Source of the DNA: a virus
Virus record (IMG/VR): IMGVR_UViG_3300005826_000294
Span: 237,684-301,683 of that record
Reading direction: 5' to 3' (one strand)
Length of the DNA: 64,000 bases
Each line of letters begins with the position of its first letter. Within the stretch, counting starts at the first letter, position 1. Below are positions 3,166 through 59,939 of this stretch, piece after piece. The notes below the pieces were generated by a model. That model made no database searches, was not told the DNA's origin, and saw nothing but the letters and a program-made list of their open reading frames with translations. Both the position numbers and the translations under genes were made by a program.

Positions 3166-3167
3166 AA

Positions 3168-7447: not shown

Positions 7448-7713
7448 TATATTTTTCTAGTATCAACATATACACCTTCTATAGATGAATATGCCCATCT
7501 TTCTCCATTATTTAATTTAACAACTGATATTAGTTTTTCATCATAACCATATATATCAGGATTCCATAAATGTAAGATTGTAGCATTTTCCTTTATTTCT
7601 AAAGTATAATCGTTTGATTTTCCTGGGTGTAAAAGAGTTCCATGGAAAAATATTAAATGAGGACAATCAATCATATCCGAAGGAACAATACAACTATAAT
7701 AAGATTTCTTCAT
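7447..7713 (-). CDS. Hypothetical protein
   Basis: 88 residues, no recognised family. A run of short predicted strands, and a sequence such as FFHGTLLHPGKSNDYTLEI, hint at a small beta fold. It is coupled at both ends by single-base TAATG overlaps with the homing endonuclease upstream and the APS kinase downstream, and has GGAGA ahead of its start. Confidence 0.6.
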   Translation of the reverse strand: MKKSYYSCIVPSDMIDCPHLIFFHGTLLHPGKSNDYTLEIKENATILHLWNPDIYGYDEKLISVVKLNNGERWAYSSIEGVYVDTRKI

Positions 7714-16425: not shown

Positions 16426-19400
16426 TCAATTCTCATAAATATTTATTACTTCTTTTAATATCAATGTTTTAGTTCCATTGTAATCACTAACTTCACATGA
16501 AATTCTAGCAGGTTTTCCAATCTTCATATGATTTTTATATTTAGCATAATCCTCTGGCCAAAGAGTTAGTTCCACATCAGAACCCATAACATCTTCAATT
16601 AAATATTTACCCATTAATTTTCCAGCAGATCTTCCATTTTTAATTTTAAATTCACGAAGAAATGCTTTTATTATTACTTCAATTAATATTACATGGCGAT
16701 TGGGAAGATTTTTTAATCTAGAAATATAAGTTATATTATTTTTTGTAAAAAAATTTGGAAAAAGGTCATTTATATTACCCGAAACTAATTCTCCAAGAAC
16801 TTCCTGTTCATATCTTAATTTTTCCTGTTTTGACCATTCATTACCAGATAATTTAAAAGGAAACTCATCAATAACCATATCAACATCATATCCATCTTTT
16901 ATCTTTTTTCTAAGAAAAGTATTCATTTTATCACGAACCTTTTTTCCTTCATCATGAATATCTTTTCTATTTACATCTAATGAATCAAAACATCCAGCTT
17001 TTGATAATGCTTCAATTTTACTTTTATTTATAATTCTACCATCTACTCTATATAGAAAATCAACAAAAGAAGAAAAAGGTTGCTTTTTTATTATTTCATC
17101 TAAAGCCTTATCTCCCATCCCTTTTATGGCCGCCAATCCCATTACAATAGTTTTTTCATCTAAAACTTCATATCCAGATTTACTTTTATTTATATCTGGG
17201 GGAATAATTGTAACTCCTAATCTTCTACATTCTGCCTTTGCTCCATTTATTTCGTCATCTCTGCTAATTCCTCCTTTTGCTGTTTTAACTTTTAAATAAG
17301 CCGCTAAAAAAGCGGCCGGATAATGACATTTTAAATATGCGGTAATATATCCATTTATTGAATAGAATACAGCATGAGACTTATTAAATCCGTAACCTCC
17401 GAACCCAGAAACATATTTATCCCATACTTCTTTCGCCAATTCATATTCTACCTTATGAGTTTGCATCATTCCTTCTATAAATTCTGCTTCTAATTTTAAA
17501 GCAAAATCTGGATCTTTACCTTTAATTTTAGTAAATTTTCTCAGTTTATCAGCCTTATTTAGATCCCATCCCGCTACTTCACCAGCAATGCTCATTAATT
17601 GCTCTTCTGTTATTGCTAAACCATATGTTTCTCCAAGAGGACCTGATAAAGATTCATGAGGATAAGTAATATCTTTTTTCCCTATTCTTCGATCAATATA
17701 TTCATCTCTAGTTCCTTTTATACCGTCTTTAGCGGCAGCAGCCGGTCTTCCAAGAGCATTGATTATAGCAATATCTAAAATATTATTAGGTTTAATTTTT
17801 TTACATAAAATAGCCATAATCCCAGACTTACCTAATTGAAAAACACATTTGGTTTGACCTTTTTGAATCATATTATAAGTATCAATATCATTAATAGGAA
17901 TATCTTCCATTTGACTTGGAGCATTTTCTATACCAAGATTTCGTATATTCTTAAATGATTCATCTATAATATCTAATGTTGAAATAGCGAGAAAATCCAT
18001 TTTCACTAATCCTTCCTCTTCACATCTGTTTTTCTCATATTGAACTGCTATTTCATTATTTTTATCAATTCTTAATGGAGCAAAATCAAAAATAGGAATA
18101 TCAGAAACAACCATCCCAGCGGCATGTGTAGAATATTCTTTAGGCATTCCAACAATTTTATCAGCATATTCCATAAGTTCTGGGCATCTATCAGCAAAAT
18201 TTTTAAGAATTGGAGATAGTTCCATAGCTCTCTCCAAAGTTTTTACTTTCTTACCATCTTTATCTTGTTCAGGAATGGCCGCTTTAATTGCTTCAGCTAC
18301 TTTTACATAGTTGGTTCCTTCAGGAATTAATCCAGGCATTACATTTCTCATAGATTTTACGAGATCTGGAATTACATTTTTAGGCGTATATGTATTAATA
18401 TTAGAAACTTGGGCACAATGATCTCTTCCATATTTTTCCCTTACATATTCCTGTACTTTATCCCTACCGCTTGATGTAAAATCTGTATCAATATCTGGAA
18501 GATCTTTCTTATGAGCATTTTGAAATCTTTCAAATAATAATCCATAGTCTAATGGATCTACTCCATGAATTCCTAATAAATACGCAATCATAGAACCACC
18601 AACACTATTATGAGATGCATAATTTTGAGTAATATAAGAAAAATCATCTTCAACACTTATATCAAATACCTTATTTGGTTTTACATTAGAAACTTGTAGG
18701 ACTTTTGAGAAAAATCCATCTTTTCTAATATTCCTTTTTCTTACATTTGAAATTAAATTGAGAGAAAACTCTATACTATATGCATCTTTTCTATTATAGA
18801 TTTTATCATCAACTTTCCATTCTCCCCCTTTTCTAAAAATAACAGAAGAAGGTGTATTTAAGTAAATCAAAGCCTCTCTAATTTCAAACATTAATCTATT
18901 ACTACTAGTTATAATAGTACTTGTTTTTCCACGTCTATACCCATCAGAATCAATTAATCCTTCTATTAATGATCTTAATAGTGTATTTGGAAGACATCTA
19001 AAAAATCCTAAATATTTAGTATCACTCGTTTTCTTATATTCTGGAAATAAAGAATTAAATAAATTTACTAATATTTTATCATAAATACATATCTCCACAC
19101 AATTTCCTTTAATATACTTTTTACAAACAAATCCAAGATTATCAAAGAAATTATGTATCCTATCAATCCCGCTATCTTTTATATTACAGGAAAAAGAAAT
19201 ATAATATGAATAATTTTTATCACTTTTATAAGTCCCGTCTCCTATCCACCTTCCAAGAATATAATAAAAATCTTTATTTGCTGGAATAAATCTTTTATAT
19301 TTTACAATATCTTTTTCTTTAGTCCAATTTTCATAAGATATTCCTAATGTTTGTAAATACGAATATATTTTTTCATTACGAATAGAGCTTCTCTTATATT

Positions 19401-21132
19401 TTGCTATAGTTTTGAGAGATAATTTAGTATTTTTAGATATATTAATATTAGAAACAGACCTATTTTTATAATACTCTTTACTTATATATCTACTTCTAAT
19501 TGTATACTTATCATTAGCAAATTGACTTAAATCAATAGATTTTGGTTTAATAATTGTTCTTTTAATGGCTGGAGTAAAAAGAAAATCTCCTGCCTCAATT
19601 TCTCCAGCACCAATCCATTTTAAATTATCTCCTCTAATATGATGTGTATAATTTTTATGGGATCCATATAATCTATGAAGTTTTCCCTCCTTTGTTTCCA
19701 TCTTTTTAGAAACCAATAATCTATGATTTTTTGTAAAAACTAATTGCCCACAAGAATATTGGGTAGAAATAGAAACACAATCTTCATCTATATCATATTT
19801 AAATACATCTAATACTTCTTTAATATTTCCAGTATGAGTATATACTTTTTCTCCTATATTAACTTCATTTATATTCTTAAATCCATTTTGAGTTAAAACT
19901 TTTGTTTCTTTTGTTGTACAACCTCTTCCTATTCCAACTAAAATATTATTATTTTTAGCCCAATTAATCATATCTTCTGTAATAAGCATATAAGATGAGA
20001 AATTATTTCCTTCCAAAATCTTTAACTCTTTCTTAATTCTATTCCATCTTTTAGTTCTTTCTTCTTTATTAAAATGACCAAATTTTTTCTTGAACCCCTT
20101 AATAATATGAAATCGCATATATGCTTTATCTTGAGATAAATCTTCTGGTATATTAGATTTTCTCCTCCATTTCATAAATTCTTCAAAATCCTTTTCTTTG
20201 CTGGGATCAAAGATTGGAAGATGATTTTCTTTGGATTCTAAATAATCAGGATTATCACATCTATCAACTATTTTAATAGTATTTAAAACAGCCTCTTCAG
20301 CAACTTCTATACCATGATGTTTTAAAAGAAAATCATAAACCTCATCTCCATCTTTTACATAAAACTCATCAATTCCATATCTATGACGATCTGGATCATC
20401 AACAGGTTTTTTAGAATTTATAGCCATTAACACATCATGAACTTTAGCATCTTCTTTTGTTAAGTAATGAGCATCTGTCGCCACAACTAATGGTAATTCC
20501 AACTCCTTAGACATTTTAATTAAATTATTATTTAATTTTATTTGACTAAAATAATCATCTTTAAGATCATGAGGTTGAATTTCTAAATAAAACCTATCTT
20601 TAAAAATATTTGCTAATTTTGTAGCATACTTTACTGCTTCATCATATTTATCTTCAAATATAAACTTAGCCAGAATTCCATTACCACACGCAGAAGTAGC
20701 GATAATACCTTCATTATATTCTTCCAATACTTCCCAACTTATTCTTGGAAAAACTCTACCCATACTCACAACAAAATGCTGAAATCCAATATAATTAATT
20801 TTTAATAAATTTTTATATCCTTTTTCATTTTGAGATAATAAAACAATATGCTTTCTTTTTTCGGTTCTTTTTCTACCCTTCTTTCCTGCTTCTGGTTCTA
20901 TAATATCATATGAATGAACGAAATATTGTTCGCACCCAGGAATAAACTTAATTCCTGTTCTCTTATATGCCTTATACGCATCAAAATGAGCCGCTAAAGT
21001 CCCATGATCTGTAACTGCTAATGCTTTTTGTCCCTTTAGTTTTACTAAATCAAATAAATCATCTACACTTTGTAAGGCATCAAGCATACTCCCAAAATTA
21101 TTATGAGTATGTAAATGTGCGAAGTCTTTCAT
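16426..21132 (-). CDS. dnaE: DNA polymerase III alpha subunit, intein-containing precursor
   Basis: 1568-residue precursor; about 1130 residues remain after removal of a 438-residue intein, the usual DnaE size. The PHP domain opens the protein (HLHTHNNFG at 6-14, AVTDHGT). The catalytic palm carries D880 and D882 (DLPDIDTDF). The finger and tandem HhH regions follow, and the C-terminus has an OB-like segment (RHVILIEVIIKAFLREFKI). The intein interrupts the GRG|SVGG active-site loop at residues 405-842. It is the replicative polymerase of this genome. No beta clamp or clamp loader is visible in the window. The start overlaps the upstream stop. Confidence 0.95.
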   Translation of the reverse strand: MKDFAHLHTHNNFGSMLDALQSVDDLFDLVKLKGQKALAVTDHGTLAAHFDAYKAYKRTGIKFIPGCEQYFVHSYDIIEPEAGKKGRKRTEKRKHIVLLSQNEKGYKNLLKINYIGFQHFVVSMGRVFPRISWEVLEEYNEGIIATSACGNGILAKFIFEDKYDEAVKYATKLANIFKDRFYLEIQPHDLKDDYFSQIKLNNNLIKMSKELELPLVVATDAHYLTKEDAKVHDVLMAINSKKPVDDPDRHRYGIDEFYVKDGDEVYDFLLKHHGIEVAEEAVLNTIKIVDRCDNPDYLESKENHLPIFDPSKEKDFEEFMKWRRKSNIPEDLSQDKAYMRFHIIKGFKKKFGHFNKEERTKRWNRIKKELKILEGNNFSSYMLITEDMINWAKNNNILVGIGRGCTTKETKVLTQNGFKNINEVNIGEKVYTHTGNIKEVLDVFKYDIDEDCVSISTQYSCGQLVFTKNHRLLVSKKMETKEGKLHRLYGSHKNYTHHIRGDNLKWIGAGEIEAGDFLFTPAIKRTIIKPKSIDLSQFANDKYTIRSRYISKEYYKNRSVSNINISKNTKLSLKTIAKYKRSSIRNEKIYSYLQTLGISYENWTKEKDIVKYKRFIPANKDFYYILGRWIGDGTYKSDKNYSYYISFSCNIKDSGIDRIHNFFDNLGFVCKKYIKGNCVEICIYDKILVNLFNSLFPEYKKTSDTKYLGFFRCLPNTLLRSLIEGLIDSDGYRRGKTSTIITSSNRLMFEIREALIYLNTPSSVIFRKGGEWKVDDKIYNRKDAYSIEFSLNLISNVRKRNIRKDGFFSKVLQVSNVKPNKVFDISVEDDFSYITQNYASHNSVGGSMIAYLLGIHGVDPLDYGLLFERFQNAHKKDLPDIDTDFTSSGRDKVQEYVREKYGRDHCAQVSNINTYTPKNVIPDLVKSMRNVMPGLIPEGTNYVKVAEAIKAAIPEQDKDGKKVKTLERAMELSPILKNFADRCPELMEYADKIVGMPKEYSTHAAGMVVSDIPIFDFAPLRIDKNNEIAVQYEKNRCEEEGLVKMDFLAISTLDIIDESFKNIRNLGIENAPSQMEDIPINDIDTYNMIQKGQTKCVFQLGKSGIMAILCKKIKPNNILDIAIINALGRPAAAAKDGIKGTRDEYIDRRIGKKDITYPHESLSGPLGETYGLAITEEQLMSIAGEVAGWDLNKADKLRKFTKIKGKDPDFALKLEAEFIEGMMQTHKVEYELAKEVWDKYVSGFGGYGFNKSHAVFYSINGYITAYLKCHYPAAFLAAYLKVKTAKGGISRDDEINGAKAECRRLGVTIIPPDINKSKSGYEVLDEKTIVMGLAAIKGMGDKALDEIIKKQPFSSFVDFLYRVDGRIINKSKIEALSKAGCFDSLDVNRKDIHDEGKKVRDKMNTFLRKKIKDGYDVDMVIDEFPFKLSGNEWSKQEKLRYEQEVLGELVSGNINDLFPNFFTKNNITYISRLKNLPNRHVILIEVIIKAFLREFKIKNGRSAGKLMGKYLIEDVMGSDVELTLWPEDYAKYKNHMKIGKPARISCEVSDYNGTKTLILKEVINIYEN
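18607..19920 (-). mobile_element. LAGLIDADG intein within DnaE
   Basis: 438 codons in frame, beginning at Cys405 and ending with SHN before Ser843 of the host protein. Splicing block A starts CTTKETKVL, block B holds TKNHRLLV, and block F has VFDISVEDDFSYI; block G is NYASHN followed by Ser. Two LAGLIDADG motifs lie between them (LGRWIGDGT and LIEGLIDSDG), so the homing endonuclease looks intact. The insertion is in the most conserved polymerase loop, the usual choice for inteins. All splicing residues appear present, so it should be active. Confidence 0.95.
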
Positions 21133-21830: not shown

Positions 21831-23159
21831 TTATTCTCCTTCTTCTAATGGATTCTCTGGAATCTCATATGTTTCATTTATCTGCTCTTCTACTTCTTCT
21901 GTAATTTGAGCTTGACTAATAATAAAATCTAATACTTTTCTATGTTTAACTAAACCTAAAACTCCATCAAGCATATTTTTTTCTTTTAAATCTTTCTTTA
22001 ATACTAATGGGCTTACTTGTTTGATCTTTGCTTCTCTCGCCAACCAATCTTCAAACTCTTCTTTAGTTACTTTAAGATTAGGTTCAGCATCATATATAGC
22101 TTCAAGCATAAATGTTCTTCTAACATTTCTTTCTGCCATGTCATGAATATGTGCTTTTATTCCCTCATCAATATTTCCCTGAAGACCTAATTGAGATGTA
22201 AGATACTTTGCCTCATCTAAAACCCAATCAGAAGGAACTTCAAAACTATGTGATTCTAATAATTTAGAAATTATTTCTTCTTCAATAGATTGTTGTTCTT
22301 TTGTTGAAGCCTCATAATCCGCTCTTTTTGTAAAAGCATTCATAAGATCTTCAAGAGACGGTGCCTGCATAGCAACAACCAGATCTTCTTCTGTTGGATG
22401 AACTCTTTCAAAAATAGATTTAATAGTAGCCTCTACACGAGCAGATTTTCCACCATAAGTTTCATTATTTTCTGGAAGAACAATATTTTCTACAAAACTA
22501 TCACCTACTTTTTTCCCAACAAGATTCTCCCCAAATGGAGGTTCTTGATCTTTATTAATAATAAAACTATTATCTTTTCCCTCCGAAATTTTCTCTTCAT
22601 CCTCTCCTATCGCAATAAAATCTAAATTTACTAGAGATCCAATTTTTACCTCATCTGTTGGAATTTCTAACATATGCTCATGTTTAGCATTTTCAATCAA
22701 TCTCTCTCGTATCTCATCTCTATTAATATTTGGTTTTTTAAGTTTTAAACCCACATATCCTGAAGCCTCAATGGTAGGTCTAACCTCTAAAGTAATATCA
22801 CAAGTAAATGTTCCATCAAAATGAAATTCCGCATTGTCTGGTTTTGGTTCTCCAAGTGGTTGTATTTTTTGCTCAAAACAACCATGTAAAAAACCTTCTT
22901 GAACTAACATAGAAGATGCTGATTTTTCAATTTCTTCAGCACAATAATTTTGTACTAATTGTTTTGGAGCTTTTCCTCTTCTAAATCCTTTAATATGTGC
23001 TCTTTTCCCAACCAATTCACAAGATTTTTCTAAAGCCATTTGAACTGCTATAGTATCATATGTAACATGAAGTTTTCGTTTTAGATCTCCTAAATCTTCC
23101 ATTGTTACAATATGATGCCATTCTTCTTTTACATCTTGTTCAATATTTTTTTCTACCAT
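21831..23159 (-). CDS. tig: Trigger factor, ribosome-associated chaperone
   Basis: 442 residues, the usual bacterial length. The ribosome-binding signature is GFRRGKAP at residues 58-65. The FKBP-like peptidyl-prolyl isomerase domain spans roughly 165-255 (VKIGSLVNLDFIAIG, PPFGENLVGKKVGD). The helical C-terminal chaperone domain follows, and the last ~20 residues are acidic. It should bind ribosomes at the exit tunnel and help fold nascent, perhaps phage, proteins. All three domains are present. It is one of several translation-associated genes here (DnaJ, tmRNA, EF-Ts, Pth2). Confidence 0.92.
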   Translation of the reverse strand: MVEKNIEQDVKEEWHHIVTMEDLGDLKRKLHVTYDTIAVQMALEKSCELVGKRAHIKGFRRGKAPKQLVQNYCAEEIEKSASSMLVQEGFLHGCFEQKIQPLGEPKPDNAEFHFDGTFTCDITLEVRPTIEASGYVGLKLKKPNINRDEIRERLIENAKHEHMLEIPTDEVKIGSLVNLDFIAIGEDEEKISEGKDNSFIINKDQEPPFGENLVGKKVGDSFVENIVLPENNETYGGKSARVEATIKSIFERVHPTEEDLVVAMQAPSLEDLMNAFTKRADYEASTKEQQSIEEEIISKLLESHSFEVPSDWVLDEAKYLTSQLGLQGNIDEGIKAHIHDMAERNVRRTFMLEAIYDAEPNLKVTKEEFEDWLAREAKIKQVSPLVLKKDLKEKNMLDGVLGLVKHRKVLDFIISQAQITEEVEEQINETYEIPENPLEEGE

Positions 23160-31848: not shown

Positions 31849-33309
31849 TTATCCTTTAAATTCACTCTCCCATATGGAAATAACATCATAACCATCATTC
31901 ATAAGATTTTGTTCTTTCTCCAAAGTTTTTTTATATAATTCCATAAAAGTTGTTTTTGTTATAGGATTAATATCATTTGGATTAAACATGTTTGGATTCC
32001 CATGAAAAAAATCACCATTAAACTCATAAATAATATTATTTATAGGATCAAAAGCATCAACTATATATTTTTGATTACAAGATCTTATTATCTTTTCCCT
32101 AAATTCTTCAGAAACACCACAATCATCTAACCATAATTGAGATATTTTGGAAATATTATTAGTACAATAACCACAACCTCCACCATTTAAATGATTATTA
32201 GGAATTTGTTTAAACTCTCCATGTTTTGGACAAATTATTATTATTTTAGTACAATTATTTTTATATTTAACCTTATCATAATTATATTTATCTCCATGTA
32301 TCTTTCTTGCCTTCTCTATAAATTCTTTTGTATTACTTCTACTATTTCTAATACTACACTTTCTACATCCACTTCCTCCTAAATGATTTATTGGAATTTG
32401 TAGAAAATCTCCGTCCTCTGGGCATGTTATAATAATTTTTGTAGAAGCATTTGTATATTTAACCTTATCATAATTATATTTATTTCCATGGATCTTTCTT
32501 GCTCTTTTTATAAAAATATTTGTTCCAAGAGATTGATCTTCATTAACACATTTTAAACAACCATGTCCTCCTAAATGATTTGCTGGATTTTGTTTAAACT
32601 CTCCATGTCTAGGACAAATTATAGTTATTTTTGTATAACTATTAATATAATCTACTTTTGAATAATCAAACTTATCATTATGAACTTTTCTAAACTCTTT
32701 AATAAGTTTATCTTGATCCTTTGTCATTCTTTCATTTACACACTTAACACATCCACTTCTAGAATGCGTTGTGGGAGTTTGTAAAAACTCCCCATGTTTA
32801 GGACATATTATTATTACTTTTTTACGATAATTAATATAATTAACTTTTGAGTAATCATATTTATTTCCATGTATTTTATTAGATTTATCTATAAATTCAT
32901 CTTTAGATAATCTAAATAACTTTGATGTAAATTCATTAGCACAAGAACGACAACCATGTCCTTTTAAATGATGATATGGTCTTTGTAAAAATTCTCCATG
33001 AATTGAACATATTATTATAATCTTTGTGGAGTTATTCTTATATTCTACTTTGGAATAATCATATCTACCATTATGTACTTTTTTTGCTTTCTTTACAAAC
33101 TCTTCTGTATTTCCTCTTTTATTATTACATTTTTTACAACCACCTCCTCCTAAATGATTATTAGGAAACTTTATAAATTCTCCATGTCTTGGACAAATTA
33201 TTATTATTCTTGTAATAGCATCAACATAATTTACTTTAGAATAATCATATTTATTTCCATGTATTTTTCTTGCCTGTTTTATAAATTCTTCTGTAATTTT
33301 CTTTTTCAT
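31849..33309 (-). CDS. Homing-endonuclease-like protein with six zinc-type repeats
   Basis: 486 residues. Six tandem ~60-residue repeats follow the pattern (R/K)KIHGNKYDYSKV...IIICP.HGEF.Q.P..HL.G.GC.KC. The fifth has ITCPEDGDF, where His is replaced. A C-terminal nuclease-like domain carries IIYEFNGDFFHGNP. It resembles the proteins at 7713-8996 and 42266-42991. It lies between the primase zinc half and the FtsK-like gene with only one- or three-base gaps and a weak ribosome binding site, as expected for an inserted mobile gene. Confidence 0.8.
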   Translation of the reverse strand: MKKKITEEFIKQARKIHGNKYDYSKVNYVDAITRIIIICPRHGEFIKFPNNHLGGGGCKKCNNKRGNTEEFVKKAKKVHNGRYDYSKVEYKNNSTKIIIICSIHGEFLQRPYHHLKGHGCRSCANEFTSKLFRLSKDEFIDKSNKIHGNKYDYSKVNYINYRKKVIIICPKHGEFLQTPTTHSRSGCVKCVNERMTKDQDKLIKEFRKVHNDKFDYSKVDYINSYTKITIICPRHGEFKQNPANHLGGHGCLKCVNEDQSLGTNIFIKRARKIHGNKYNYDKVKYTNASTKIIITCPEDGDFLQIPINHLGGSGCRKCSIRNSRSNTKEFIEKARKIHGDKYNYDKVKYKNNCTKIIIICPKHGEFKQIPNNHLNGGGCGYCTNNISKISQLWLDDCGVSEEFREKIIRSCNQKYIVDAFDPINNIIYEFNGDFFHGNPNMFNPNDINPITKTTFMELYKKTLEKEQNLMNDGYDVISIWESEFKG

Positions 33310-40368: not shown

Positions 40369-42276
40369 CTAAATATCTAAATTCTTTACATTGATAGCAT
40401 TTTCTACAATAAAGTCTTTTCTTGGTTCTACTTGATTTCCCATAAGAATACTAAATATTTTATCTGCTTCAACATAATTCTCAATAGTTACTTTCAAAAG
40501 TGTTCTTCTTTCTGGATCTAAAGTGGTGTTCCATAACTGTTCTGGACTCATTTCTCCAAGTCCTTTAAATCTTTGAAGTTTAAATGAACCCGTTTTTAAA
40601 TTATTATCTTCAACAAAGGTTTTAAGTTCTCTCTCATTTTTAATATAAAAATGATTTCTTCTATAAGTTATTCTATATAAAGGTGGCTGAGCTATATATA
40701 TATTATCATTAATAATTAATTGGGGCATTTGTCTAAAAATAAATGTTAATAATAAAGTTCGTATATGACTTCCATCAACATCTGAATCACATAGAATTAT
40801 AATTTTTCCATATCTTAATTTATTTAAATTAAACCCTTTCCCAATTCCAACACCAGATGCTGTTATAAGATTATTTAATTCTTCATTTGCCATCATCTTT
40901 TGGAATTCACATTTTTCAACATTTAGAACTTTTCCTCTAAGAGGTAGAACTGCTTGATATCGTCTATCACGACCTTGTTTTGTTGAACCTCCGGCACTAT
41001 TTCCTTCTACCACAAATAATTCACATTCATCAGGATCACGAGAACTACAATCTGCTAATTTGCCAGGCAAAATACTTCCACCATCCTTAAATACAGATTT
41101 TCTTGTTGCCTCTCTTGCTTTTTTGGCCGCTTCTCTTGCTTTATGAGCATTAATACATTGGGTTACAATTTTTTTAGCAGTTGGAGGATTTTGTTCTAAA
41201 TACCTCATAACATTATGAGAAACAATTGACTCAACAGCATTTCTTGCATCTTCCGAAACGAGTTTTTCTTTTGTTTGAGAACTAAATTTTGGATCTGGAT
41301 GTCTTATACTTACAACAGATATTAAACCTTCACGAATATCATCTCCAGAAAGAGAAACTTTTAATGTCTTTGGAAGATCAGAAGAACTAATATAATTATT
41401 TATTGTCCTTGTTAAAGCTGATTTAAAACCAAAAGAATGAGACCCTCCATCTGGATTAGGGATGTTATTTGTAAAATATCTAGCAATTTCTATCTCTGAA
41501 CCTCCTTCCAACCATTGAAGTCCAACATCAATAGTTATATCATTACTAATATCAGTAAAAACAATCGGTTTATCTAATAAAGAAGAAGGAGCAAGATGCT
41601 CAATAAATCCTGAAATATCGTTATCTCCGCCAAATATTTTTTTGGTTTTACTTAATTCATTAATAAATTCAATTTCTAACCCTCTACAAAGATATGATAA
41701 TTCTCTTAATTTTCGTTCTATAATATTTGAATCAAAATCTATAACATTGGTAAAAATTGTTGTATCTGGTACAAAACGGATAAATGTTCCTGTTTCTTTT
41801 GATTTTATTGACTTTTCTGAGAATTCTTCTATCTTTTTCCCTTTTTCAAAAGCCATCGTATATTCTTTACCATCTTTTTTAACTATTACTCTAAGACGAC
41901 TTGAAAGAGCAACCGAGACACTAATGCCAACTCCGTGTAATCCTCCACTTATCTTATAATTATTATTATTTTTAAATTTCCCTCCTGCGTGTAGTGTAGT
42001 CATAACTACTTCTAAAGCACTCATTTTCTTTTCAGGCATATAATATGTTGGAATACCTCTTCCATTATCTAAAACTGATATTGAACCATCTTTATATAAT
42101 GTAATAGATATTTTATTACAATGACCAGCAAGATATTCATCTACAGAATTATCTAAAATTTCAAAAAACAAGTGGTGTAATCCCGTTCCATCCTGAGTAT
42201 TTCCTATATACATTCCACTTACTTCTCTAACTGCTTCAAGATTTTCCAATGCTTGAATTTTATATTCATTCTTCAT
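40369..42276 (-). CDS. gyrB: DNA gyrase subunit B-like type IIA topoisomerase
   Basis: 635 residues from the ATG at 42276 (GGAGA upstream; an in-frame TTG at 42291 is not needed). The GHKL ATPase has EILDNSVDE, DNGRGIP and GGLHGVG. The TOPRIM domain has VVEGNSAGGS and CDSDVDGSHIRTL, and PLRGKVLNVE is present. Length and motifs are those of bacterial GyrB/ParE. No gyrA/parC is in the window; it may pair with a subunit elsewhere or with the host. A yacG homologue, an inhibitor of gyrase, lies 1.1 kb upstream. Confidence 0.95.
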   Translation of the reverse strand: MKNEYKIQALENLEAVREVSGMYIGNTQDGTGLHHLFFEILDNSVDEYLAGHCNKISITLYKDGSISVLDNGRGIPTYYMPEKKMSALEVVMTTLHAGGKFKNNNNYKISGGLHGVGISVSVALSSRLRVIVKKDGKEYTMAFEKGKKIEEFSEKSIKSKETGTFIRFVPDTTIFTNVIDFDSNIIERKLRELSYLCRGLEIEFINELSKTKKIFGGDNDISGFIEHLAPSSLLDKPIVFTDISNDITIDVGLQWLEGGSEIEIARYFTNNIPNPDGGSHSFGFKSALTRTINNYISSSDLPKTLKVSLSGDDIREGLISVVSIRHPDPKFSSQTKEKLVSEDARNAVESIVSHNVMRYLEQNPPTAKKIVTQCINAHKAREAAKKAREATRKSVFKDGGSILPGKLADCSSRDPDECELFVVEGNSAGGSTKQGRDRRYQAVLPLRGKVLNVEKCEFQKMMANEELNNLITASGVGIGKGFNLNKLRYGKIIILCDSDVDGSHIRTLLLTFIFRQMPQLIINDNIYIAQPPLYRITYRRNHFYIKNERELKTFVEDNNLKTGSFKLQRFKGLGEMSPEQLWNTTLDPERRTLLKVTIENYVEADKIFSILMGNQVEPRKDFIVENAINVKNLDI

Positions 42277-42991
42277 TAAATTTTTCTCCAACTTTCATAT
42301 CGTGATCTGTTTCCCATTTATATATTAAACTATATCCTTCATTAATTAAAATCTTTGCTCTTTCTATTGTTTTATTATATAATTCACCAAATTTTATTTT
42401 AAGCCTTTTATTTAATTCATTTGATTTATAAAGTTTAGGGTTCCCATGCCAGAAATCTCCATAGTATTCATATATTGTATTTGTTCTTTTATTAAAACCA
42501 TCAACCAAAAATTTATTTTCTTTAATATATATTATCTTTTCTTGTTCTATATTGTTAATATTACTTAACCATTCATCTGCTTGTTTAGATTTATTAGAGT
42601 AGGCACATCTTGGACATCCATTTTTTCTCATATGGCAATTCGGGATTTGATAAAACTCACCATGATCTGGACAAATTATTATTACTTTCCTATGAGCATT
42701 AATATAATTTACTTTTGAATAATCATATTTATTATTATGGGTTTTATTTGATCTCTTTAAAAATTCTTCTTTTGATAGTTGAAACTTTTTTCTTAACTTG
42801 TATTTCATACATTTTCTACAATCTTGCCCAATTAAATGTTTTGATGGTTTTTGTTGAAACTCTCCATGTCTTGGACAAATTATTGTAATTTTTGTATTTA
42901 AATTCACATATTCTATTTTCTCATAATTATATTTATTTCCATGAACTTCTTTTGCTCTTCTTAAAAACCATTCTTTTTTATATGCCTTCAT
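42266..42991 (-). CDS. Homing-endonuclease-like protein with two zinc-type repeats
   Basis: 241 residues. Two ~60-residue repeats of the HGNKYNYEK...IICPRHGEF.Q.P..HL family are followed by a Vsr/PD-(D/E)XK-like domain with IYEYYGDFWHGNP. It is the smallest of three relatives in the window (others at 7713-8996 and 31849-33309). It sits between mazG and gyrB, with ATGA overlap upstream and an 11-base overlap with gyrB, so the insertion preserved both neighbours. Confidence 0.78.
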   Translation of the reverse strand: MKAYKKEWFLRRAKEVHGNKYNYEKIEYVNLNTKITIICPRHGEFQQKPSKHLIGQDCRKCMKYKLRKKFQLSKEEFLKRSNKTHNNKYDYSKVNYINAHRKVIIICPDHGEFYQIPNCHMRKNGCPRCAYSNKSKQADEWLSNINNIEQEKIIYIKENKFLVDGFNKRTNTIYEYYGDFWHGNPKLYKSNELNKRLKIKFGELYNKTIERAKILINEGYSLIYKWETDHDMKVGEKFNEE

Positions 42992-43380: not shown

Positions 43381-43574
43381 TAATTCCTCCAAAATGGATC
43401 TGGTTTTTCTGTATTTTCATCTACATTTGGAACTGGTTCTGATATAACATATTCTTCAGAAAACCATCCCCATAAATCTATCATTTGACATCTCTCTGAA
43501 CAAAATGGATAATATCTATTATTTTCTAATATATCTCTTTCTGATTCGCATATTATACATTTTCCAAATTTCAT
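43380..43574 (-). CDS. yacG: YacG-like gyrase inhibitor (zinc protein)
   Basis: 64 residues, the usual YacG length. Zinc ligands C6, C9, C25 and C29 follow the family spacing C-x2-C-x15-C-x3-C, and FCSERCQMIDLWGWFSEEY is the diagnostic core. In bacteria YacG binds GyrB and blocks DNA binding by gyrase. A phage gyrB lies 1.1 kb downstream, so this product may silence host gyrase or regulate the phage enzyme. It is coupled to both neighbours by TAATG. Confidence 0.85.
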   Translation of the reverse strand: MKFGKCIICESERDILENNRYYPFCSERCQMIDLWGWFSEEYVISEPVPNVDENTEKPDPFWRN

Positions 43575-44053
43575 TAACTACAATCCTCCACTATTATAAT
43601 AGATCCATCTTTAACTCCTTGATCTAATATAGTATTTGTATAAACGTCATTATTACTTATACTTATTTTACATATATTTCCTTCTATTTTAGAAATTTGT
43701 TCTTGCTTTTTTTGAAAATTATCAATTTCTTCTTTTAAATATTGAATAAGTTTTCCAGCTGTAATGTTATATCCAAATCCTCTATATTTAGGTGGAACTT
43801 CATTTAAATTAAAGATTTCTAATGATTTTATATTTTTCATAGTAACATCAATATCATGTTGAATATTATCTAATATCTGCTTTTTAGAATCACTTTCTAT
43901 TCTTGTCTCATTATCATAAAATCCATTATTTTTAATATGATCTATTATATTTAGAGATTTTCTACCACATGTTGGGCATGGATCTATATTTTCAATCTTG
44001 ATTGTAAAACTTGAAGAACTACTATTACTTACAAATCCATTTCTAATCTTCAT
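43574..44053 (-). CDS. SNSSSSSF-leader protein, copy 3
   Basis: 159 residues starting MKIRNGFVSNSSSSSF. Following this leader is a Cys pair (CPTC), then helices and strands unlike the other two leader-bearing proteins. AGGTGA precedes the ATG. Proteins beginning with this leader are common in phage genomes, and I know of no established function. The leader is followed directly by hydrophobic residues (TIKIENI). No signal-peptide character is present. Confidence 0.65.
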   Translation of the reverse strand: MKIRNGFVSNSSSSSFTIKIENIDPCPTCGRKSLNIIDHIKNNGFYDNETRIESDSKKQILDNIQHDIDVTMKNIKSLEIFNLNEVPPKYRGFGYNITAGKLIQYLKEEIDNFQKKQEQISKIEGNICKISISNNDVYTNTILDQGVKDGSIIIVEDCS

Positions 44054-44061
44054 GTTATCAC

Positions 44062-44382
44062 CTACATATCTATAGAATATGAAAAAACTTCTTCTTTGTT
44101 TTTATTAACCATAACTTTATATTTATCCCATATTGAATAAATTTTGTCTTCTTCAATATCAATATTTAATTCACATAAAGTATAAAAATCTTCACTTGAA
44201 ACACATTCTCCAACAATTAAATCAAATCCACAAAATTTACTTTTTTGGTTCATAATAGCATTTACTACAGACTTTTCTATTTCATTAAGTTGGTCCATTA
44301 CTTTTTGATGATTTTGAATAGTAGTTGCTATAATAAAACTTGAAGAACTACTGTTGCTTACAAATCCATTTCTAATCTTCAT
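44062..44382 (-). CDS. SNSSSSSF-leader protein, copy 2
   Basis: 106 residues from the ATG at 44382; an ATG at 44400 lies inside the upstream gene, and GGGAGGAG sits between them. It starts with the same 16-residue leader as its two neighbours, then IIATTIQNHQKVM and an unrelated alpha/beta body. It overlaps the upstream stop (ATGA). Function unknown. Confidence 0.65.
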   Translation of the reverse strand: MKIRNGFVSNSSSSSFIIATTIQNHQKVMDQLNEIEKSVVNAIMNQKSKFCGFDLIVGECVSSEDFYTLCELNIDIEEDKIYSIWDKYKVMVNKNKEEVFSYSIDM

Positions 44383-44843
44383 TTCTTTTTCTCCTCCCAT
44401 CCTTTTAGATTTTTAAATTTCTCTCTAATTTCCTGATGAATTTTATCACGATTTTGAGAAAACTTTTCTAACAAAAAATCTGCTTCTAAATTTTTAGAAA
44501 TATAAGTTAAATTACAAATAGGGCAAACTTCTTCATGTAATCTAAAACCATTATATTTCTTAATCCACCTTATTTTATCTTCAGTTTCAAGAAAATCATT
44601 AACTTGACTATCTATAAGATTTAATTTTTCAATTACTTTATTAATATCAGAAGATAATTCATTTATAGATTTATCTATCCATTTTTCACAATCCTGACAA
44701 ATCTCATGATCACGACAACAATAATATACATCTATCTCATATTGATTATCATATCCTTCATATACCTCATATACCTCATTACAAACATTACAAACAAAAC
44801 TTGAAGAACTACTATTGCTTACAAATCCATTTCTAATCTTCAT
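44379..44843 (-). CDS. SNSSSSSF-leader protein, copy 1, Cys-rich
   Basis: 154 residues. The leader is followed by a Cys-rich body (CNVC, YYCCRDHEICQDC, and later CPIC), which probably binds zinc. Helices lie between the Cys clusters. Only the leader is shared with the two downstream neighbours. It overlaps the rnhB stop by four bases and uses GGAG within the end of rnhB as ribosome binding site. Confidence 0.65.
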   Translation of the reverse strand: MKIRNGFVSNSSSSSFVCNVCNEVYEVYEGYDNQYEIDVYYCCRDHEICQDCEKWIDKSINELSSDINKVIEKLNLIDSQVNDFLETEDKIRWIKKYNGFRLHEEVCPICNLTYISKNLEADFLLEKFSQNRDKIHQEIREKFKNLKGWEEKKK

Positions 44844-48231: not shown

Positions 48232-48636
48232 TTACTCCAATAATCTTAATTTTTTTAAGTATTTAGGAACATTATCACAATGAATTGGAATAATACCCAT
48301 ACAAGTTAAAGTTGTTCCATCTTTTTCTTCAGGATCCAACATTGTTAAACAACTATCATAAATCAATTTATATCTCAACTCGTCGGAGTCAAGTTTTTTA
48401 ACAATATTAAGCAATTTCTCCTTACTTTTTACATAAACCACAAGTTTGGTAAATTTACCCATTAACCATTTTTCAACATTAATATGATATCTATAATATT
48501 TACTTATATTACAATCGTTTAATCTACTATCTACTACTATACCTAATGAGGCGTGAGCTACTTGTGATGAGGTTTTTCCAATTCCCATTTTTGATACTAA
48601 ATCTTTTCTAACAATAATGTATTGTAAATAACTCAT
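48232..48636 (-). CDS. Peptidyl-tRNA hydrolase, Pth2 family
   Basis: 134 residues from the ATG at 48636 (AGGAG seven bases ahead; the ATG overlaps the pyrD stop). QYIIVRKDL, MGIGKTSSQVAHASLG, KLVVYVKSKEKL, and GTTLTCMGIIP match Pth2, the form typical of archaea and eukaryotes and scattered in bacteria. Pth2 frees tRNA from peptidyl-tRNA lost during abortive translation. It fits with the tmRNA and EF-Ts genes here. Confidence 0.8.
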   Translation of the reverse strand: MSYLQYIIVRKDLVSKMGIGKTSSQVAHASLGIVVDSRLNDCNISKYYRYHINVEKWLMGKFTKLVVYVKSKEKLLNIVKKLDSDELRYKLIYDSCLTMLDPEEKDGTTLTCMGIIPIHCDNVPKYLKKLRLLE

Positions 48637-49721
48637 GCCCAATCTCCTACTATATCTTTGATTTTTTGATTTTCGTTTAAATTATACAAAATTCCATTTA
48701 ATATCCTAACAGGAGTTCTTGGACCATGAATAACAAAACCGGTATATAACTGAACCAATGAAGCTCCACATTTAATATATGTTAAAGCATCAACATCCTT
48801 TTCAATTCCCCCTACACCAATTATAGGAAGGTTTCCCCCAGTATGTTTATAAGCAGCTTGTACAGATCTAATACCATATTCTTTAAGAAAATGACCGCTT
48901 CTTCCCCCCCGTGTCCTAATACCATTAATATTTATAACATCAGGAAAAGTATTTACTAAAATAACACCAGACATTTCATATTTTAATAATAAATCTAATC
49001 GTTTTTTTAATATATCAAAATCAAATGTTGGCTTAAAATTAGGTTCAGGATAAGTTAAACTTGGCCCCATTTTCATAAAAAACGGAATATCCTTCATGCC
49101 CATACTATTAAAAAACTTTCTATTTTTTAAAATACTACATAGAATTCTTTCTTCATCGTAAAGTCCATCTTCTCTTACATTTGGACATGATAGATTTATT
49201 GTTATATAATCTACATAACTAGTTAATGCATTATATATTCTAAATAAAGTATCTTCATCTGTTCTTCCTATGTTAAATTCTAATTCTGGTGATATACTTG
49301 CTCCAATTATTCCATCAAACTTATATGATGATATATTTTTACAAATTTTTAAATATCCTGAATTAGGAAGTCCCATACAATTAAAAAGTTCTCTATTATC
49401 TAATCTCCAAACTCGTGGTTTTTGTTTTCCATTTCTTGGATGAAAAGTCATAGTTCCAACTTCAACATGACCAAAACCAAGAGAAAAAAGACTAGGAAAA
49501 ACATAACCTTCTTTATCAAATCCGGCAGCCATTCCAATTGGATTATTAAACCTAATACCAGCAACATCAATATTAAGTCTATCATCTTTAGGCACTTTTC
49601 TATTCATTAATTTAGAAATAGTTTCACTTCTAGAAGATTTTCTTAAAAACCATAAAGCCATATTATGAGCTTTTTCAGCATCCATTTTTGAAAGAAAATT
49701 TTTATATAACCATCTATACAT
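48633..49721 (-). CDS. pyrD: Dihydroorotate dehydrogenase
   Basis: 362 residues. The N-terminal helical hat (FLSKMDAEKAHNMALWFLR) and NPIGMAAGFDKEG resemble class 2, membrane-linked, quinone-dependent enzymes. EVGTMTFHPRNGKQKPRVWR and IIGVGGIEKDVDAL with ASLVQLYTGF are FMN-binding motifs. The base position reads INLSCPN, a Cys, whereas class 2 enzymes use Ser. NCMGLPNSG also resembles class 1. It oxidises dihydroorotate to orotate in pyrimidine synthesis. Confidence 0.92.
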   Translation of the reverse strand: MYRWLYKNFLSKMDAEKAHNMALWFLRKSSRSETISKLMNRKVPKDDRLNIDVAGIRFNNPIGMAAGFDKEGYVFPSLFSLGFGHVEVGTMTFHPRNGKQKPRVWRLDNRELFNCMGLPNSGYLKICKNISSYKFDGIIGASISPELEFNIGRTDEDTLFRIYNALTSYVDYITINLSCPNVREDGLYDEERILCSILKNRKFFNSMGMKDIPFFMKMGPSLTYPEPNFKPTFDFDILKKRLDLLLKYEMSGVILVNTFPDVININGIRTRGGRSGHFLKEYGIRSVQAAYKHTGGNLPIIGVGGIEKDVDALTYIKCGASLVQLYTGFVIHGPRTPVRILNGILYNLNENQKIKDIVGDWA

Positions 49722-56512: not shown

Positions 56513-57856
56513 TTACTTAAATTTTGGAAGAACAGGATAATTACCAGAAAAACAAGCATCACAATAACAATTCATACGATTTTCATCAATCCCAGATTTC
56601 ATTCCATTAAGACTTATATATTCTAATGAATCTGCTTCTATATATATTTTTATTTCTTCTTTGAGTTTACTATTAGCAATTAATTCATTTTTACTAGGAA
56701 TATCAATTCCGTAATAACAAGGAAACTTTACAGGAGGAGAACTTATTCTTAAATGAACCTCTTTTGCCCCAACATCTCTTAACATAGAAACAATCTTTTT
56801 AGAAGTTGTTCCACGAACTAATGAATCATCTACTACAACAACTCTCTTATTCTTAATTAAACTATAAACTGGTGAAAGTTTTAATCTAACCTTTAAACCA
56901 CGAGTAGATTTCTCTGGTTCAATAAATGTTCTTCCAATATAATGGTTCCTAACCAATCCCATTCCAAATGGAATTTTTGATTCCTCAGAATAACCAAGAG
57001 CAGATGTAGTCCCAGAATCTGGAACAGAAATAATAATATCTGCTGGAACAAAATGCTCTTTTGCTAATATTTGACCTAATTTATATCTTGATTCATATAC
57101 ACTAAATGGACCAAGTTGTGAGTCTGGTCTGGCAAAATATACATGCTCAAATATACAAAACTTTGGAGTAATTGATTTATTAGAATGAAATTCTACTCCA
57201 TCTTTATTTACTACAACAATTTCTCCAGGTTTTATTGATCTAATAAGTTTAGCTCCTATAAGATCAAATGCTGATGTTTCAGAAGAAAATATCCATGAAT
57301 TAGAAAGTTTCCCAATACTAAGTGGTCTGAAACCATGAGGATCTCTAATAGCAATCATTTCATTTTCGGTCATAAATAATAATGAATATGCTCCTTTAAT
57401 GCGATCCATTATATTTATAACTCTATCTAAGATATTTAATTTACTATTAGCAAATAAATGAACTATAACTTCTCCATCCACAGAAGAAAAAAATAAAGCT
57501 CCATTTCCTTCTAATTCTTCCCTAAGTTCTCTAAAATTAACGAGATTTCCATTATGTGCTAAGGAAAATTGACCATTAGAATAATCAACCATAAATGGCT
57601 GAGCATTTGATCTATTTGACTCTCCTGCTGTTGAATATCTAACATGTCCAATTGCCATTGTTCCTTTAAGATTATTTATAGATGATTTATTGAATACATT
57701 CGTCACCAATCCCATATTATTATATGAATATAATTGATTTTTATCACTAGAAACAATTCCGGCACTTTCTTGACCACGATGTTGTAATGCTTGTAATCCT
57801 AAATATACTATATTAGCGGCTTCAGGATGATCGTAAATTCCAAAAATTCCGCACAT
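56513..57856 (-). CDS. purF: Amidophosphoribosyltransferase (PurF)
   Basis: 447 residues. It makes phosphoribosylamine from PRPP and glutamine, the first step of purine synthesis. Cys2 is the glutaminase nucleophile (MCGIFGIYD). The PRPP loop VVVVDDSLVRGTT lies at 339-351. C234, C380, C432 and C435 match the iron-sulfur ligands of the Bacillus-type enzyme, which is oxygen-sensitive and regulated. AAAGGAG precedes the ATG. No other purine genes are in the window. Confidence 0.96.
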   Translation of the reverse strand: MCGIFGIYDHPEAANIVYLGLQALQHRGQESAGIVSSDKNQLYSYNNMGLVTNVFNKSSINNLKGTMAIGHVRYSTAGESNRSNAQPFMVDYSNGQFSLAHNGNLVNFRELREELEGNGALFFSSVDGEVIVHLFANSKLNILDRVINIMDRIKGAYSLLFMTENEMIAIRDPHGFRPLSIGKLSNSWIFSSETSAFDLIGAKLIRSIKPGEIVVVNKDGVEFHSNKSITPKFCIFEHVYFARPDSQLGPFSVYESRYKLGQILAKEHFVPADIIISVPDSGTTSALGYSEESKIPFGMGLVRNHYIGRTFIEPEKSTRGLKVRLKLSPVYSLIKNKRVVVVDDSLVRGTTSKKIVSMLRDVGAKEVHLRISSPPVKFPCYYGIDIPSKNELIANSKLKEEIKIYIEADSLEYISLNGMKSGIDENRMNCYCDACFSGNYPVLPKFK

Positions 57857-57866
57857 TTAAGCTCCT

Positions 57867-58061
57867 TTAAATTAAGTTTATATTTTTTACAAAGTCATAT
57901 AGTCTATCCCTTGCTTCTTCCGCAATAGATACTGGGTTTGGTGGTTTATCTATAATTCCAAATAAAAAATCTTTATATCCTTGTTTTTCAATATCCTTCA
58001 TAAGAAGTTTATAATATTCTTTAAATAAAAAATTAATTTGTTGTTCAATTTCATTAATCAT
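57867..58061 (-). CDS. Small helical protein
   Basis: 64 residues, helical, unrecognised. GGAG precedes the ATG, and the start lies about 20 bases after the 3' CCA of the tmRNA. It is therefore probably read from the same transcript after tmRNA processing. Confidence 0.55.
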   Translation of the reverse strand: MINEIEQQINFLFKEYYKLLMKDIEKQGYKDFLFGIIDKPPNPVSIAEEARDRLYDFVKNINLI

Positions 58062-58080: not shown

Positions 58081-58426
58081 TGGTGGAGATGCCGGGCATC
58101 GACTCCCGGGTCCAGACTTGATCAAATAAAGACATTTACAGGTTTAGCCAGCGTTTATAGCAACTTTTAAGCCCACTGGCAGGCTCGCAGTTGCTTGTTG
58201 CTCTATATCTCGCTTATAATCCGAACAACAAAATTATAAACCAACCTATTCATCGGCGCCTCTCTCAATCATCATAGGTAGGAGTTTTGAGGAGACGGGC
58301 TGCTAGGCAGCCATTGCGTATTCTTGTTCGCCAACTATTGTTTTGCCTAAGCTTTTAAAGAGTTCATAGACACACTCTACATGAAGTCTTTACCCAATTC
58401 AAACCTGTCGAATCCAATTCATCCCC
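58081..58426 (-). ncRNA. ssrA: Transfer-messenger RNA (tmRNA)
   Basis: The 5' end reads GGGGATGAATTGGATTCGACA and the 3' end CATCTCCACCA. The two ends form a seven-base-pair acceptor stem, and the encoded CCA is present. The tag frame starts after TAGTT at 58332 and ends with TAG at 58303-58305; it encodes GEQEYAMAA, so the full degradation tag would be A-GEQEYAMAA, ending like YALAA. A hairpin (GGCTGC/GCAGCC) covers the tag stop. tmRNA rescues stalled ribosomes with SmpB; no smpB gene is seen here. The T-loop seems slightly long. Confidence 0.96.
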
Positions 58427-58432
58427 AATATT

Positions 58433-59395
58433 TTATACTAATAACTCTACACATTCAGGCATCATATTTTCAAAAATATTTCTTCCATATGGAACCATAT
58501 TTAACTTTTTAAAATGAGTAATTAATGTTACAGATGAAGAATGACTTTCTATTATTGAATTTCTTATTTCATTACGTAAAATATCTCTTGTAAAATAAAT
58601 TATATCATCTGATAAATTAATCGAATCCAGTTCCTTTACCATACTATGATTAGAAGAAAGAATTATTCTATGTGAAAATCGTTCTGAAGTATCCCAAGAA
58701 ATAAATTTATTAAATTTTCCTATTAAAGAAGATGCTTTTTTAAGTTCCTTTATAGAAAACCATAATAATAATTTCTTTTGTTTTAAACTGCTTCTATATA
58801 TTGTTCCAGTTCTATCCAATCTATTAATTACCCAATGTGGAGTAAAAAATAAAGTTGAAATGAAACCTAAAAATAATTGAGGAGATCCTGTTTTGCTACA
58901 ATAAATAGATCCAACTTTAAGATCTTTATTTAAAATAATACTTAATCCATGATAATTAGATTTAAAACTATTATATAATTGAGAATTTGTTCGTATTAAC
59001 TTCATTTGACTATGATTCAAAAACCAAACAAAATCTCCATTTATTTTACCACCAATATCTATTCCACAATTATATATTATATCTAAAAGAACATCTTCTC
59101 GTAAATCTACAAGATAATTAGGAGGATATATAACTTTATATGCTCTACCTCCTCCAATTCTTTTATCAAGTCCCACTATTCTTAAATTAGATATAGGTTC
59201 ATTTTCTATTATAAAAGATGATCCTGTTTGCCATTTTTTAGCAGTTTTAATAAATCTATCACTATCTGCTGGTACGATAAATACTGGAATTACTTCTACC
59301 GGTTTTTCTTCTGGTTTTAATATAACTGTTTTAGTATTTTCTTTTAAAATAATGAATAGTTTTTCTGGAATACATATTAATTTCCTATCTCCCAT
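58433..59395 (-). CDS. Hypothetical protein between EF-Ts and tmRNA
   Basis: 320 residues, unrecognised. It is alpha/beta, with VIPVFIVPADSDRFIKTA in the N-terminal third, RIGGGRAYKVIYPP after it, and helical stretches later. It ends seven bases before the tmRNA and overlaps tsf by 19 bases. Context suggests a link with translation, but no domain supports that. Confidence 0.55.
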   Translation of the reverse strand: MGDRKLICIPEKLFIILKENTKTVILKPEEKPVEVIPVFIVPADSDRFIKTAKKWQTGSSFIIENEPISNLRIVGLDKRIGGGRAYKVIYPPNYLVDLREDVLLDIIYNCGIDIGGKINGDFVWFLNHSQMKLIRTNSQLYNSFKSNYHGLSIILNKDLKVGSIYCSKTGSPQLFLGFISTLFFTPHWVINRLDRTGTIYRSSLKQKKLLLWFSIKELKKASSLIGKFNKFISWDTSERFSHRIILSSNHSMVKELDSINLSDDIIYFTRDILRNEIRNSIIESHSSSVTLITHFKKLNMVPYGRNIFENMMPECVELLV

Positions 59396-59928
59396 CGTAT
59401 AAACCTTTTTATTCTACATGATTCATTAACTTTATTAATCAATTCCGCCAAAAGTTCTTTTATAATTTTAGAATTATCTTTTATATATGTCTGTTCTAAT
59501 AAACAAACCTCAGAAAACCATTGAACTAATTCCGCTTCAGGATTTGAATTATTTGATCGCCTATCATATTCCTTTAAATAATCTTCTTCTGGAACATCAT
59601 CTCGTGATATATATTTTGGTTTCATTGATGCTATTTGTAAAGCAATCTCTCTCGCAAATCTTTGGAACTCTTCAGTTTTGGCAACAAAATCCGTATCACA
59701 ATGAAGTTCTACGAGAACTCCAATTCTATTTCCTGGATGAATATAAGAATGAACAATACCAATCTCAGATTCATTTGTTGGAGCAGAATTAATTATTCTT
59801 AATCCTCTCTTCATTAAAATATTTTCCGCTTCTTTTATGTCCTGATTTGCTTCTTTCAATGCTTTTTTACATTCAGCATAACTCGCTTGGGTTATTTTTC
59901 TTAAATTTTTAATATTTTCTATATTCAT
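59377..59928 (-). CDS. tsf: Elongation factor Ts, short form
   Basis: 183 residues from the ATG at 59928, which has AGGA seven bases ahead; an ATG at 59934 directly abuts it. An N-terminal UBA-like segment (LRKITQASYAECKKAL) is followed by the core SYIHPGNRIGVLVELHCDTDFV and FARE.ALQIAS. YISRDDVPEE and the C-terminal RFIRWEIG complete the protein. This is the short EF-Ts form. It exchanges GDP for GTP on EF-Tu and presumably binds host EF-Tu. Confidence 0.94.
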   Translation of the reverse strand: MNIENIKNLRKITQASYAECKKALKEANQDIKEAENILMKRGLRIINSAPTNESEIGIVHSYIHPGNRIGVLVELHCDTDFVAKTEEFQRFAREIALQIASMKPKYISRDDVPEEDYLKEYDRRSNNSNPEAELVQWFSEVCLLEQTYIKDNSKIIKELLAELINKVNESCRIKRFIRWEIGN

Positions 59929-59939
59929 TCTCATTTCCT

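What the first reader, a model, noticed from the sequence alone, without database searches (positions are those of the whole stretch)
58081..58426. Complete phage tmRNA with an unusual short tag
The gene has paired tRNA-like ends, an encoded CCA, and a tag frame giving A-GEQEYAMAA. The nine encoded residues are fewer than in most known tags, and the YAMAA ending differs slightly from the usual YALAA. The resume codon would be GGC rather than the common GCN. Because no smpB is visible, it presumably uses host SmpB. The short tag could alter proteolysis of phage proteins.
Basis: partly seen in the sequence, partly recalled or inferred. Interest (0 to 1): 0.6.

Follow-up and report, generated by a model that had tools for sequence, protein, structure and literature searches.

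The report
Phage tmRNA with a swapped T-loop
A roughly 300-kb phage carries a complete ribosome-rescue RNA (tmRNA) whose degradation tag is of an ordinary bacterial type, but whose tRNA-like elbow has a specific 8-base T-loop that recurs in unrelated phages and was not found in about 1,200 bacterial genomes.

Summary
The tmRNA is real and complete: Rfam RF00023, 148 bits, end to end, on the minus strand at 58081-58426, with G3·U, all four pseudoknots, encoded CCA and tag A-GEQEYAMAA (GGC resume codon). The phage record (301,683 bp) has no SmpB, so host SmpB is inferred. Nine-residue tags read from GGC and ending YALAA/YAMAA (GETSYAMAA, GETNYAMAA, GENNYALAA) occur in 23 of 99 sampled Bacteroidota genomes, and the commonest tag length in the tmRNA database is 10. 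The odd part, which was missed, is the T-loop: 8 nt AGUCGAUG instead of 7-nt UUCRANN. ARAGORN misses the gene. I found the same loop class (AGUCG[GA][AU]G) in 20 further viral contigs, in one-piece and permuted tmRNAs with unrelated bodies. It was absent from 1,194 bacterial genomes of three phyla, while the canonical arm is found in 27 of 40. In an unbiased viral set the loop is either canonical or this one motif. Near-identical phages carry different loops at the same locus, so the loop is swapped in place. My leading reading is a working tmRNA whose T-arm escapes something that targets canonical ssrA. The structure is shown; the selective agent is inferred.

The parts
58081..58426 (-). complete one-piece tmRNA gene (ssrA), 346 nt including encoded CCA
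   Evidence: RF00023 148 bits, model 1-374
58420..58426 (-). 5' acceptor strand GGGGAUG, pairs with CAUCUCC; G3.U identity pair
58085..58091 (-). 3' acceptor strand CAUCUCC
58081..58084 (-). discriminator A plus encoded CCA
   Evidence: 0 of 23 aligned Bacteroidota genes encode CCA
58092..58109 (-). T-arm CCGGG-AGUCGAUG-CCCGG
58097..58104 (-). non-canonical 8-nt T-loop AGUCGAUG
   Evidence: that it causes the ARAGORN miss is inferred
58303..58332 (-). tag reading frame GEQEYAMAA-stop (resume codon GGC, stop UAG)
58298..58312 (-). tag-end hairpin GGCUGC-CUA-GCAGCC with the stop codon starting in its loop
58344..58379 (-). pseudoknot 1
   Evidence: stems 5/6 and 6/6
58244..58297 (-). pseudoknot 2
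   Evidence: stems 6/6, 5/5, 6/6
58195..58241 (-). pseudoknot 3
   Evidence: stems 10/10, 6/6
58147..58195 (-). pseudoknot 4
   Evidence: stems 7/7, 4/4, 7/7
58433..59395 (-). upstream ORF, 320 aa, no Pfam match; stop codon 6 nt before the tmRNA 5' end, same strand
59377..59934 (-). elongation factor Ts, overlapping the 320-aa ORF
   Evidence: PF00889 3.1e-23
57867..58061 (-). downstream ORF, 64 aa, starts 19 nt after the tmRNA 3' end
56513..57856 (-). PurF-like amidophosphoribosyltransferase
   Evidence: PF13537 1e-20, PF00156 6.6e-6

Best explanation
This is a working one-piece tmRNA of a jumbo phage. By family knowledge it is alanylated through G3.U, carried by EF-Tu with host SmpB, rescues stalled ribosomes, and adds A-GEQEYAMAA, a Bacteroidota-type degradation tag. 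The phage keeps it in a gene cluster with EF-Ts, probably co-transcribed, to keep ribosomes in use during infection. Its T-loop has been replaced by a second, specific form (AGUCGRWG, 8 nt) that keeps U55-C56-G57, the bases of the elbow contact, but loses U54 and the 7-nt size. The loop has been swapped repeatedly into unrelated phage tmRNAs. Most likely it makes the phage gene or RNA resistant to an agent that targets canonical ssrA: an integrase or homing endonuclease at DNA level, or an elbow-directed nuclease at RNA level. Shown: structure, tag, loop, distribution, repeated in-place swaps. Inferred: activity, use of host SmpB, and escape as the reason.
For: Full CM match and intact helices. 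Bacteroidota-type tag. Unbiased viral set: all 103 identified T-loops plus the window's are UUCRAN(N) or AGUCG[GA][AU]G, nothing else. 20 further viral contigs with the loop (19 confirmed by cmscan; L340 truncated, by similarity); ARAGORN misses all 21. 0 true hits in 399+396+399 genomes of three phyla, against 27 true canonical T-arms in 40 genomes. T-loop state changes at least 7 times on the body tree, 3 forced by well-supported branches. L055 (AGUCGGUG) and L115/L150 (UUCGAUU) have flanks 93-98% identical. Precedents: phage tRNA-Tyr with a distinctive variable loop resists retron-Eco7 (PMC13096335); the ssrA T-loop is an integrase site (PMC3146451).
Against: No expression or activity data. 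No targeting agent identified. No shared neighbouring gene seen beside the variant tmRNAs. The best relative of comparable size (340 kb, TerL 64%) has EF-Ts but no tmRNA, so the gene may be dispensable. Strong Shine-Dalgarno use (63% of ORFs against 6.5% random) argues against a typical Bacteroidota host.
Confidence: 0.5

Rival explanations
1. The loop is a neutral alternative T-loop that folds equally well and spreads among phages by recombination, with no escape function.
For: U55-C56-G57 are kept; short T-arm stretches are nearly identical between unrelated tmRNAs.
Against: At least four coordinated differences from canonical, no intermediates in 103 viral tmRNAs, and absence from 1,194 bacterial genomes are not expected of a neutral change.
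Confidence: 0.25
2. The loop adapts the tmRNA to a phage factor or to the lack of host modification (TrmA, TruB), or makes it a decoy that binds SmpB without normal tagging.
For: TruB substrates carry 53-GUUYRANYC-61 and TrmA needs a 7-nt loop (PMC7912444); the variant has neither. A TLD-only phage tmRNA inhibits host tmRNA (PMC4131195, PMC11915505).
Against: Tag, pseudoknots and CCA are intact here, which a decoy would not need; no SmpB in the phage.
Confidence: 0.15
3. A tmRNA passively acquired from a host, on its way to decay.
For: Bacteroidota-type tag; relative G017 lacks the gene.
Against: Every helix and the tag frame are intact; the loop is a recurrent motif, not random decay.
Confidence: 0.1

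Closest known systems
Bacterial one-piece tmRNA (RF00023), Bacteroidota type
   Same: four pseudoknots, G3.U, 9-residue GGC-started tag ending YALAA/YAMAA
   Different: 8-nt AGUCGAUG T-loop instead of UUCRANN; encoded CCA (absent in the 23 aligned Bacteroidota genes)
tmRNAs and SmpB of huge phages (Al-Shayeb 2020, PMC7162821), with EF-Ts also reported there
   Same: jumbo-phage translation cargo
   Different: those tmRNAs were called with ARAGORN, which misses this loop class; no SmpB here
Phage tmRNAs of mycobacteriophages, Bacillus phage G and Melnitz (PMC4131195, PMC9004378)
   Same: complete phage-borne ssrA
   Different: Melnitz is permuted two-piece; no 8-nt T-loop mentioned in the passages read
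T5 tRNA-Tyr, resistant to retron-Eco7 cleavage (PMC13096335, PMC11555353)
   Same: phage copy of a translation RNA with an altered loop
   Different: tRNA variable loop, demonstrated function; here a tmRNA T-loop, function inferred

Membership tests
tmRNA (RF00023) | covariance model match over the full length | tested here: met
   148 bits, 1-374
tmRNA (RF00023) | Ala-identity G3.U in a 7-bp acceptor stem and a 3' CCA | tested here: met
tmRNA (RF00023) | tag frame with resume codon after PK1, ending in hydrophobic-Ala-Ala | tested here: met
   GEQEYAMAA
tmRNA (RF00023) | pseudoknots | tested here: met
   stems of PK1-PK4 pair
tmRNA (RF00023) | canonical 7-nt UUCRANN T-loop (usual, not absolute) | tested here: not met
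   8-nt AGUCGAUG
tmRNA (RF00023) | alanylation, SmpB binding, trans-translation | not testable with these tools
   needs experiment
Bacteroidota-type tmRNA | GGC resume codon and G[ED]xxYA[LM]AA tag | tested here: met
   23 of 99 Bacteroidota, 0 of 60 Pseudomonadota
Bacteroidota-type tmRNA | canonical T-loop, no encoded CCA | tested here: not met
Phage of Bacteroidota | weak Shine-Dalgarno use (from general knowledge) | tested here: not met
   63% of ORFs have an SD-like motif

The most novel reading that the evidence does not exclude
Phages maintain a second, mutually exclusive T-loop allele (AGUCGRWG) of tmRNA that toggles with the canonical one between near-identical genomes, because something in host cells or in rival mobile elements attacks the canonical ssrA T-arm. 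It would be a counter-defence or self/non-self mark built into a ribosome-rescue RNA.
Probability: 0.35. Interest if true: 0.75.

Novelty: new variant of a known kind. Interest (0 to 1): 0.5.

Why it matters
The T-loop of tRNA and tmRNA is among the most conserved RNA motifs. A specific alternative that recurs in unrelated phage tmRNAs, and toggles between close relatives, points to a conflict centred on ssrA that can be tested with natural allele pairs. It also means that ARAGORN-based surveys have missed this class of viral tmRNAs.

Tried and rejected
Unusual short tag: rejected. Sequencing error in the loop: rejected, same motif in 20 other contigs. A T-loop change in phage tRNAs generally: no tRNA gene with this loop in the held viral loci. 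A first T-loop pattern hit (L019) was not a tmRNA. EF-Ts and PurF as handles for relatives in viral contigs: nothing; TerL gave 19 relatives, none with a tmRNA above cut-off, most of them fragments. Isolated phages: no relative of the window gene or of four variant tmRNAs, and no true variant T-loop (H41 is chance). Homing endonuclease as a constant neighbour: not seen. Host: the tag says Bacteroidota, SD use says otherwise; left open.

Full report
OBSERVATION. The window is the last 64 kb of a 301,683-bp IMG/VR virus record. Rfam finds one RNA in it, RF00023 tmRNA at 58081-58426 on the minus strand, 148 bits, full model length. Read 5' to 3', acceptor GGGGAUG pairs with CAUCUCC including G3·U, the T-stem is perfect, and the stems of all four pseudoknots and of the tag-end hairpin pair. 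It folds better than all of 100 shuffles (z -3.4). The tag frame is GGC GAA CAA GAA UAC GCA AUG GCU GCC UAG, giving A-GEQEYAMAA. No SmpB is encoded in the record (the same search finds SmpB in 12 of 14 control genomes). The phage has nine tRNA-like genes at 4-14 kb. In window coordinates, in transcription order, the neighbours are EF-Ts (59377-59934), a 320-aa ORF (58433-59395), the tmRNA, a 64-aa ORF and a PurF-like gene, all on the minus strand. The tmRNA begins 6 nt after a stop codon, so co-transcription is likely (inference).

THE TAG IS ORDINARY. I searched 99 genomes of the phylum of a Bacteroidales MAG (L237) for a GGN-GAN-N6-TAY-GCN-NTN-GCN-GCN-TAR frame. 23 had one, all starting with GGC, for example GETSYAMAA, GETNYAMAA, GDYSYAMAA, GENNYALAA. 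All 23 lie in a tmRNA with matching acceptor and T-stems and a frame 89-102 nt from the 5' end (94 in the phage). None of 60 Pseudomonadota genomes had one. The tmRNA database paper gives 10 aa as the commonest tag length and reports tags as short as 2 aa (PMC11915505). Viral tmRNAs in my sample include 8-residue (ADEYAKAA, ANEMAMAA) and 9-residue (VEENFALAA) tags and AMAA endings. So length, ending and resume codon match a common bacterial type. The tag suggests a Bacteroidota host or donor. The strong Shine-Dalgarno use of the phage (63% of ORFs against 6.5% of random sites) argues against a typical Bacteroidota host, so the host is left open. Unlike the 23 Bacteroidota genes, the phage gene encodes its CCA.

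THE T-LOOP IS NOT ORDINARY. ARAGORN misses the gene. Its T-loop is AGUCGAUG, 8 nt, where tmRNAs have UUCRANN. In an unbiased set of viral contigs, found by the 5' end only, 103 T-loops could be read. They are all canonical UUCRAN(N) (one appears as 9 nt only because of a register choice) or AGUCG[GA][AU]G (L055, L080, L128); the window is the fourth example of the second kind. A directed scan gave 16 more contigs, all confirmed as tmRNA by cmscan: 13 one-piece and 3 permuted. L080, L055 and L128 were also confirmed. L340, truncated at its contig end, belongs to the L055 group by similarity. In all, 21 records including the window, about 15 distinct sequences; ARAGORN finds none of them. The scan pattern fixed AGUCG and the last G, so conservation of those bases is partly ascertained in the directed set; the other two bases were free yet only GA, GU and AU occur. 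In one search the loop was not fixed in advance.

BACTERIA. The pattern GGAC-N5-AGTCGRWG-N5-CNNCTCC has no true match in 399 Pseudomonadota, 396 Bacteroidota or 399 genomes of the phylum of a Eubacterium MAG (the one match has an unpaired stem). The same pattern with the canonical loop matches 28 of 40 Pseudomonadota, 27 of them with a paired stem. Other phyla were not searched.

REPEATED SWAPS. On a tree built without the T-arm and 3' acceptor, loop state changes at least 7 times; well-supported branches force 3 (quick tree, several long branches). The permuted forms were not in that tree. The clearest case: L055 (AGUCGGUG) and L115/L150/L075 (UUCGAUU) are close relatives, 97-98% identical over 1.8 kb upstream and about 93% through the tmRNA and downstream, with the loop different in place. 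L128 is 95% identical to canonical L155. The loop keeps U55-C56-G57, changes 54, 60 and usually 58 (the window keeps A58), and adds one base (reading of the sequences).

MECHANISM. Trans-translation itself follows from the family. Why the loop changes is inference. TruB substrates carry 53-GUUYRANYC-61, and TrmA needs a seven-membered loop and also methylates tmRNA (PMC7912444), so the variant should escape m5U54. The middle of the ssrA T-loop is an integration site of genomic islands (PMC3146451) and a group I intron site (PMC11915505). Phage tRNA-Tyr with a distinctive loop resists retron-Eco7 (PMC13096335). Because the loop is confined to tmRNA genes in the held viral loci, I favour an ssrA-specific pressure, at DNA or RNA level, over a general tRNA nuclease. 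No common neighbouring gene was seen.

KNOWN CONTEXT. Huge phages carrying tmRNA, SmpB and EF-Ts have been reported (PMC7162821), with tmRNAs assigned by ARAGORN. A 2021 survey found tmRNAs in 402 of 18,146 phages (PMC9004378). In my literature searches I saw no report of this T-loop; the library does not hold most subscription journals.

Noticed in passing
L055:2534-2725, L115:4099-4290, L340:5064-5255, L171 (ORF within 2930-3196): Viral tmRNA genes with a complete ~60-aa protein ORF (MSENNN..GYEIRQGLLQQAQ.. / MSNKESGYGIRADLL..) nested inside the tmRNA, between tag and 3' tRNA half; absent from shorter relatives such as L110.
   Followed up: partly
L167, L215, L169, L173, L172, L206, L175: A GOLLD RNA (RF02032) lies close to the variant-loop tmRNA in seven contigs.
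   Followed up: no
window 16426-21132: DNA polymerase III alpha-like protein that appears to be interrupted by an intein (CTTKETKVLTQNGFKNINE...NYASHNSVGGS), read by eye.
   Followed up: no
window 43574-44843: Three adjacent genes share the N-terminus MKIRNGFVSNSSSSSF but differ afterwards.
   Followed up: no
window 7713-8996, 31849-33309, 42266-42991: Repeated proteins with many copies of a KYDYSKVxYxNxxTKIxIICxxHGEF unit and an endonuclease-like C-terminus; more copies elsewhere in the record.
   Followed up: no
window 21831-23159, 48232-48642: Phage-encoded trigger factor and Pth2 peptidyl-tRNA hydrolase, further translation-related cargo besides EF-Ts and tmRNA.
   Followed up: partly
L006:12512-12587: ARAGORN reports a tRNA with a four-base anticodon (gaaa) in this phage.
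   Followed up: no
L080:2970-3374: ORF resembling a PARP-type ADP-ribosyltransferase (LFHGTSTKNWVGILSRGL...) close to a variant-loop tmRNA; by eye only.
   Followed up: no
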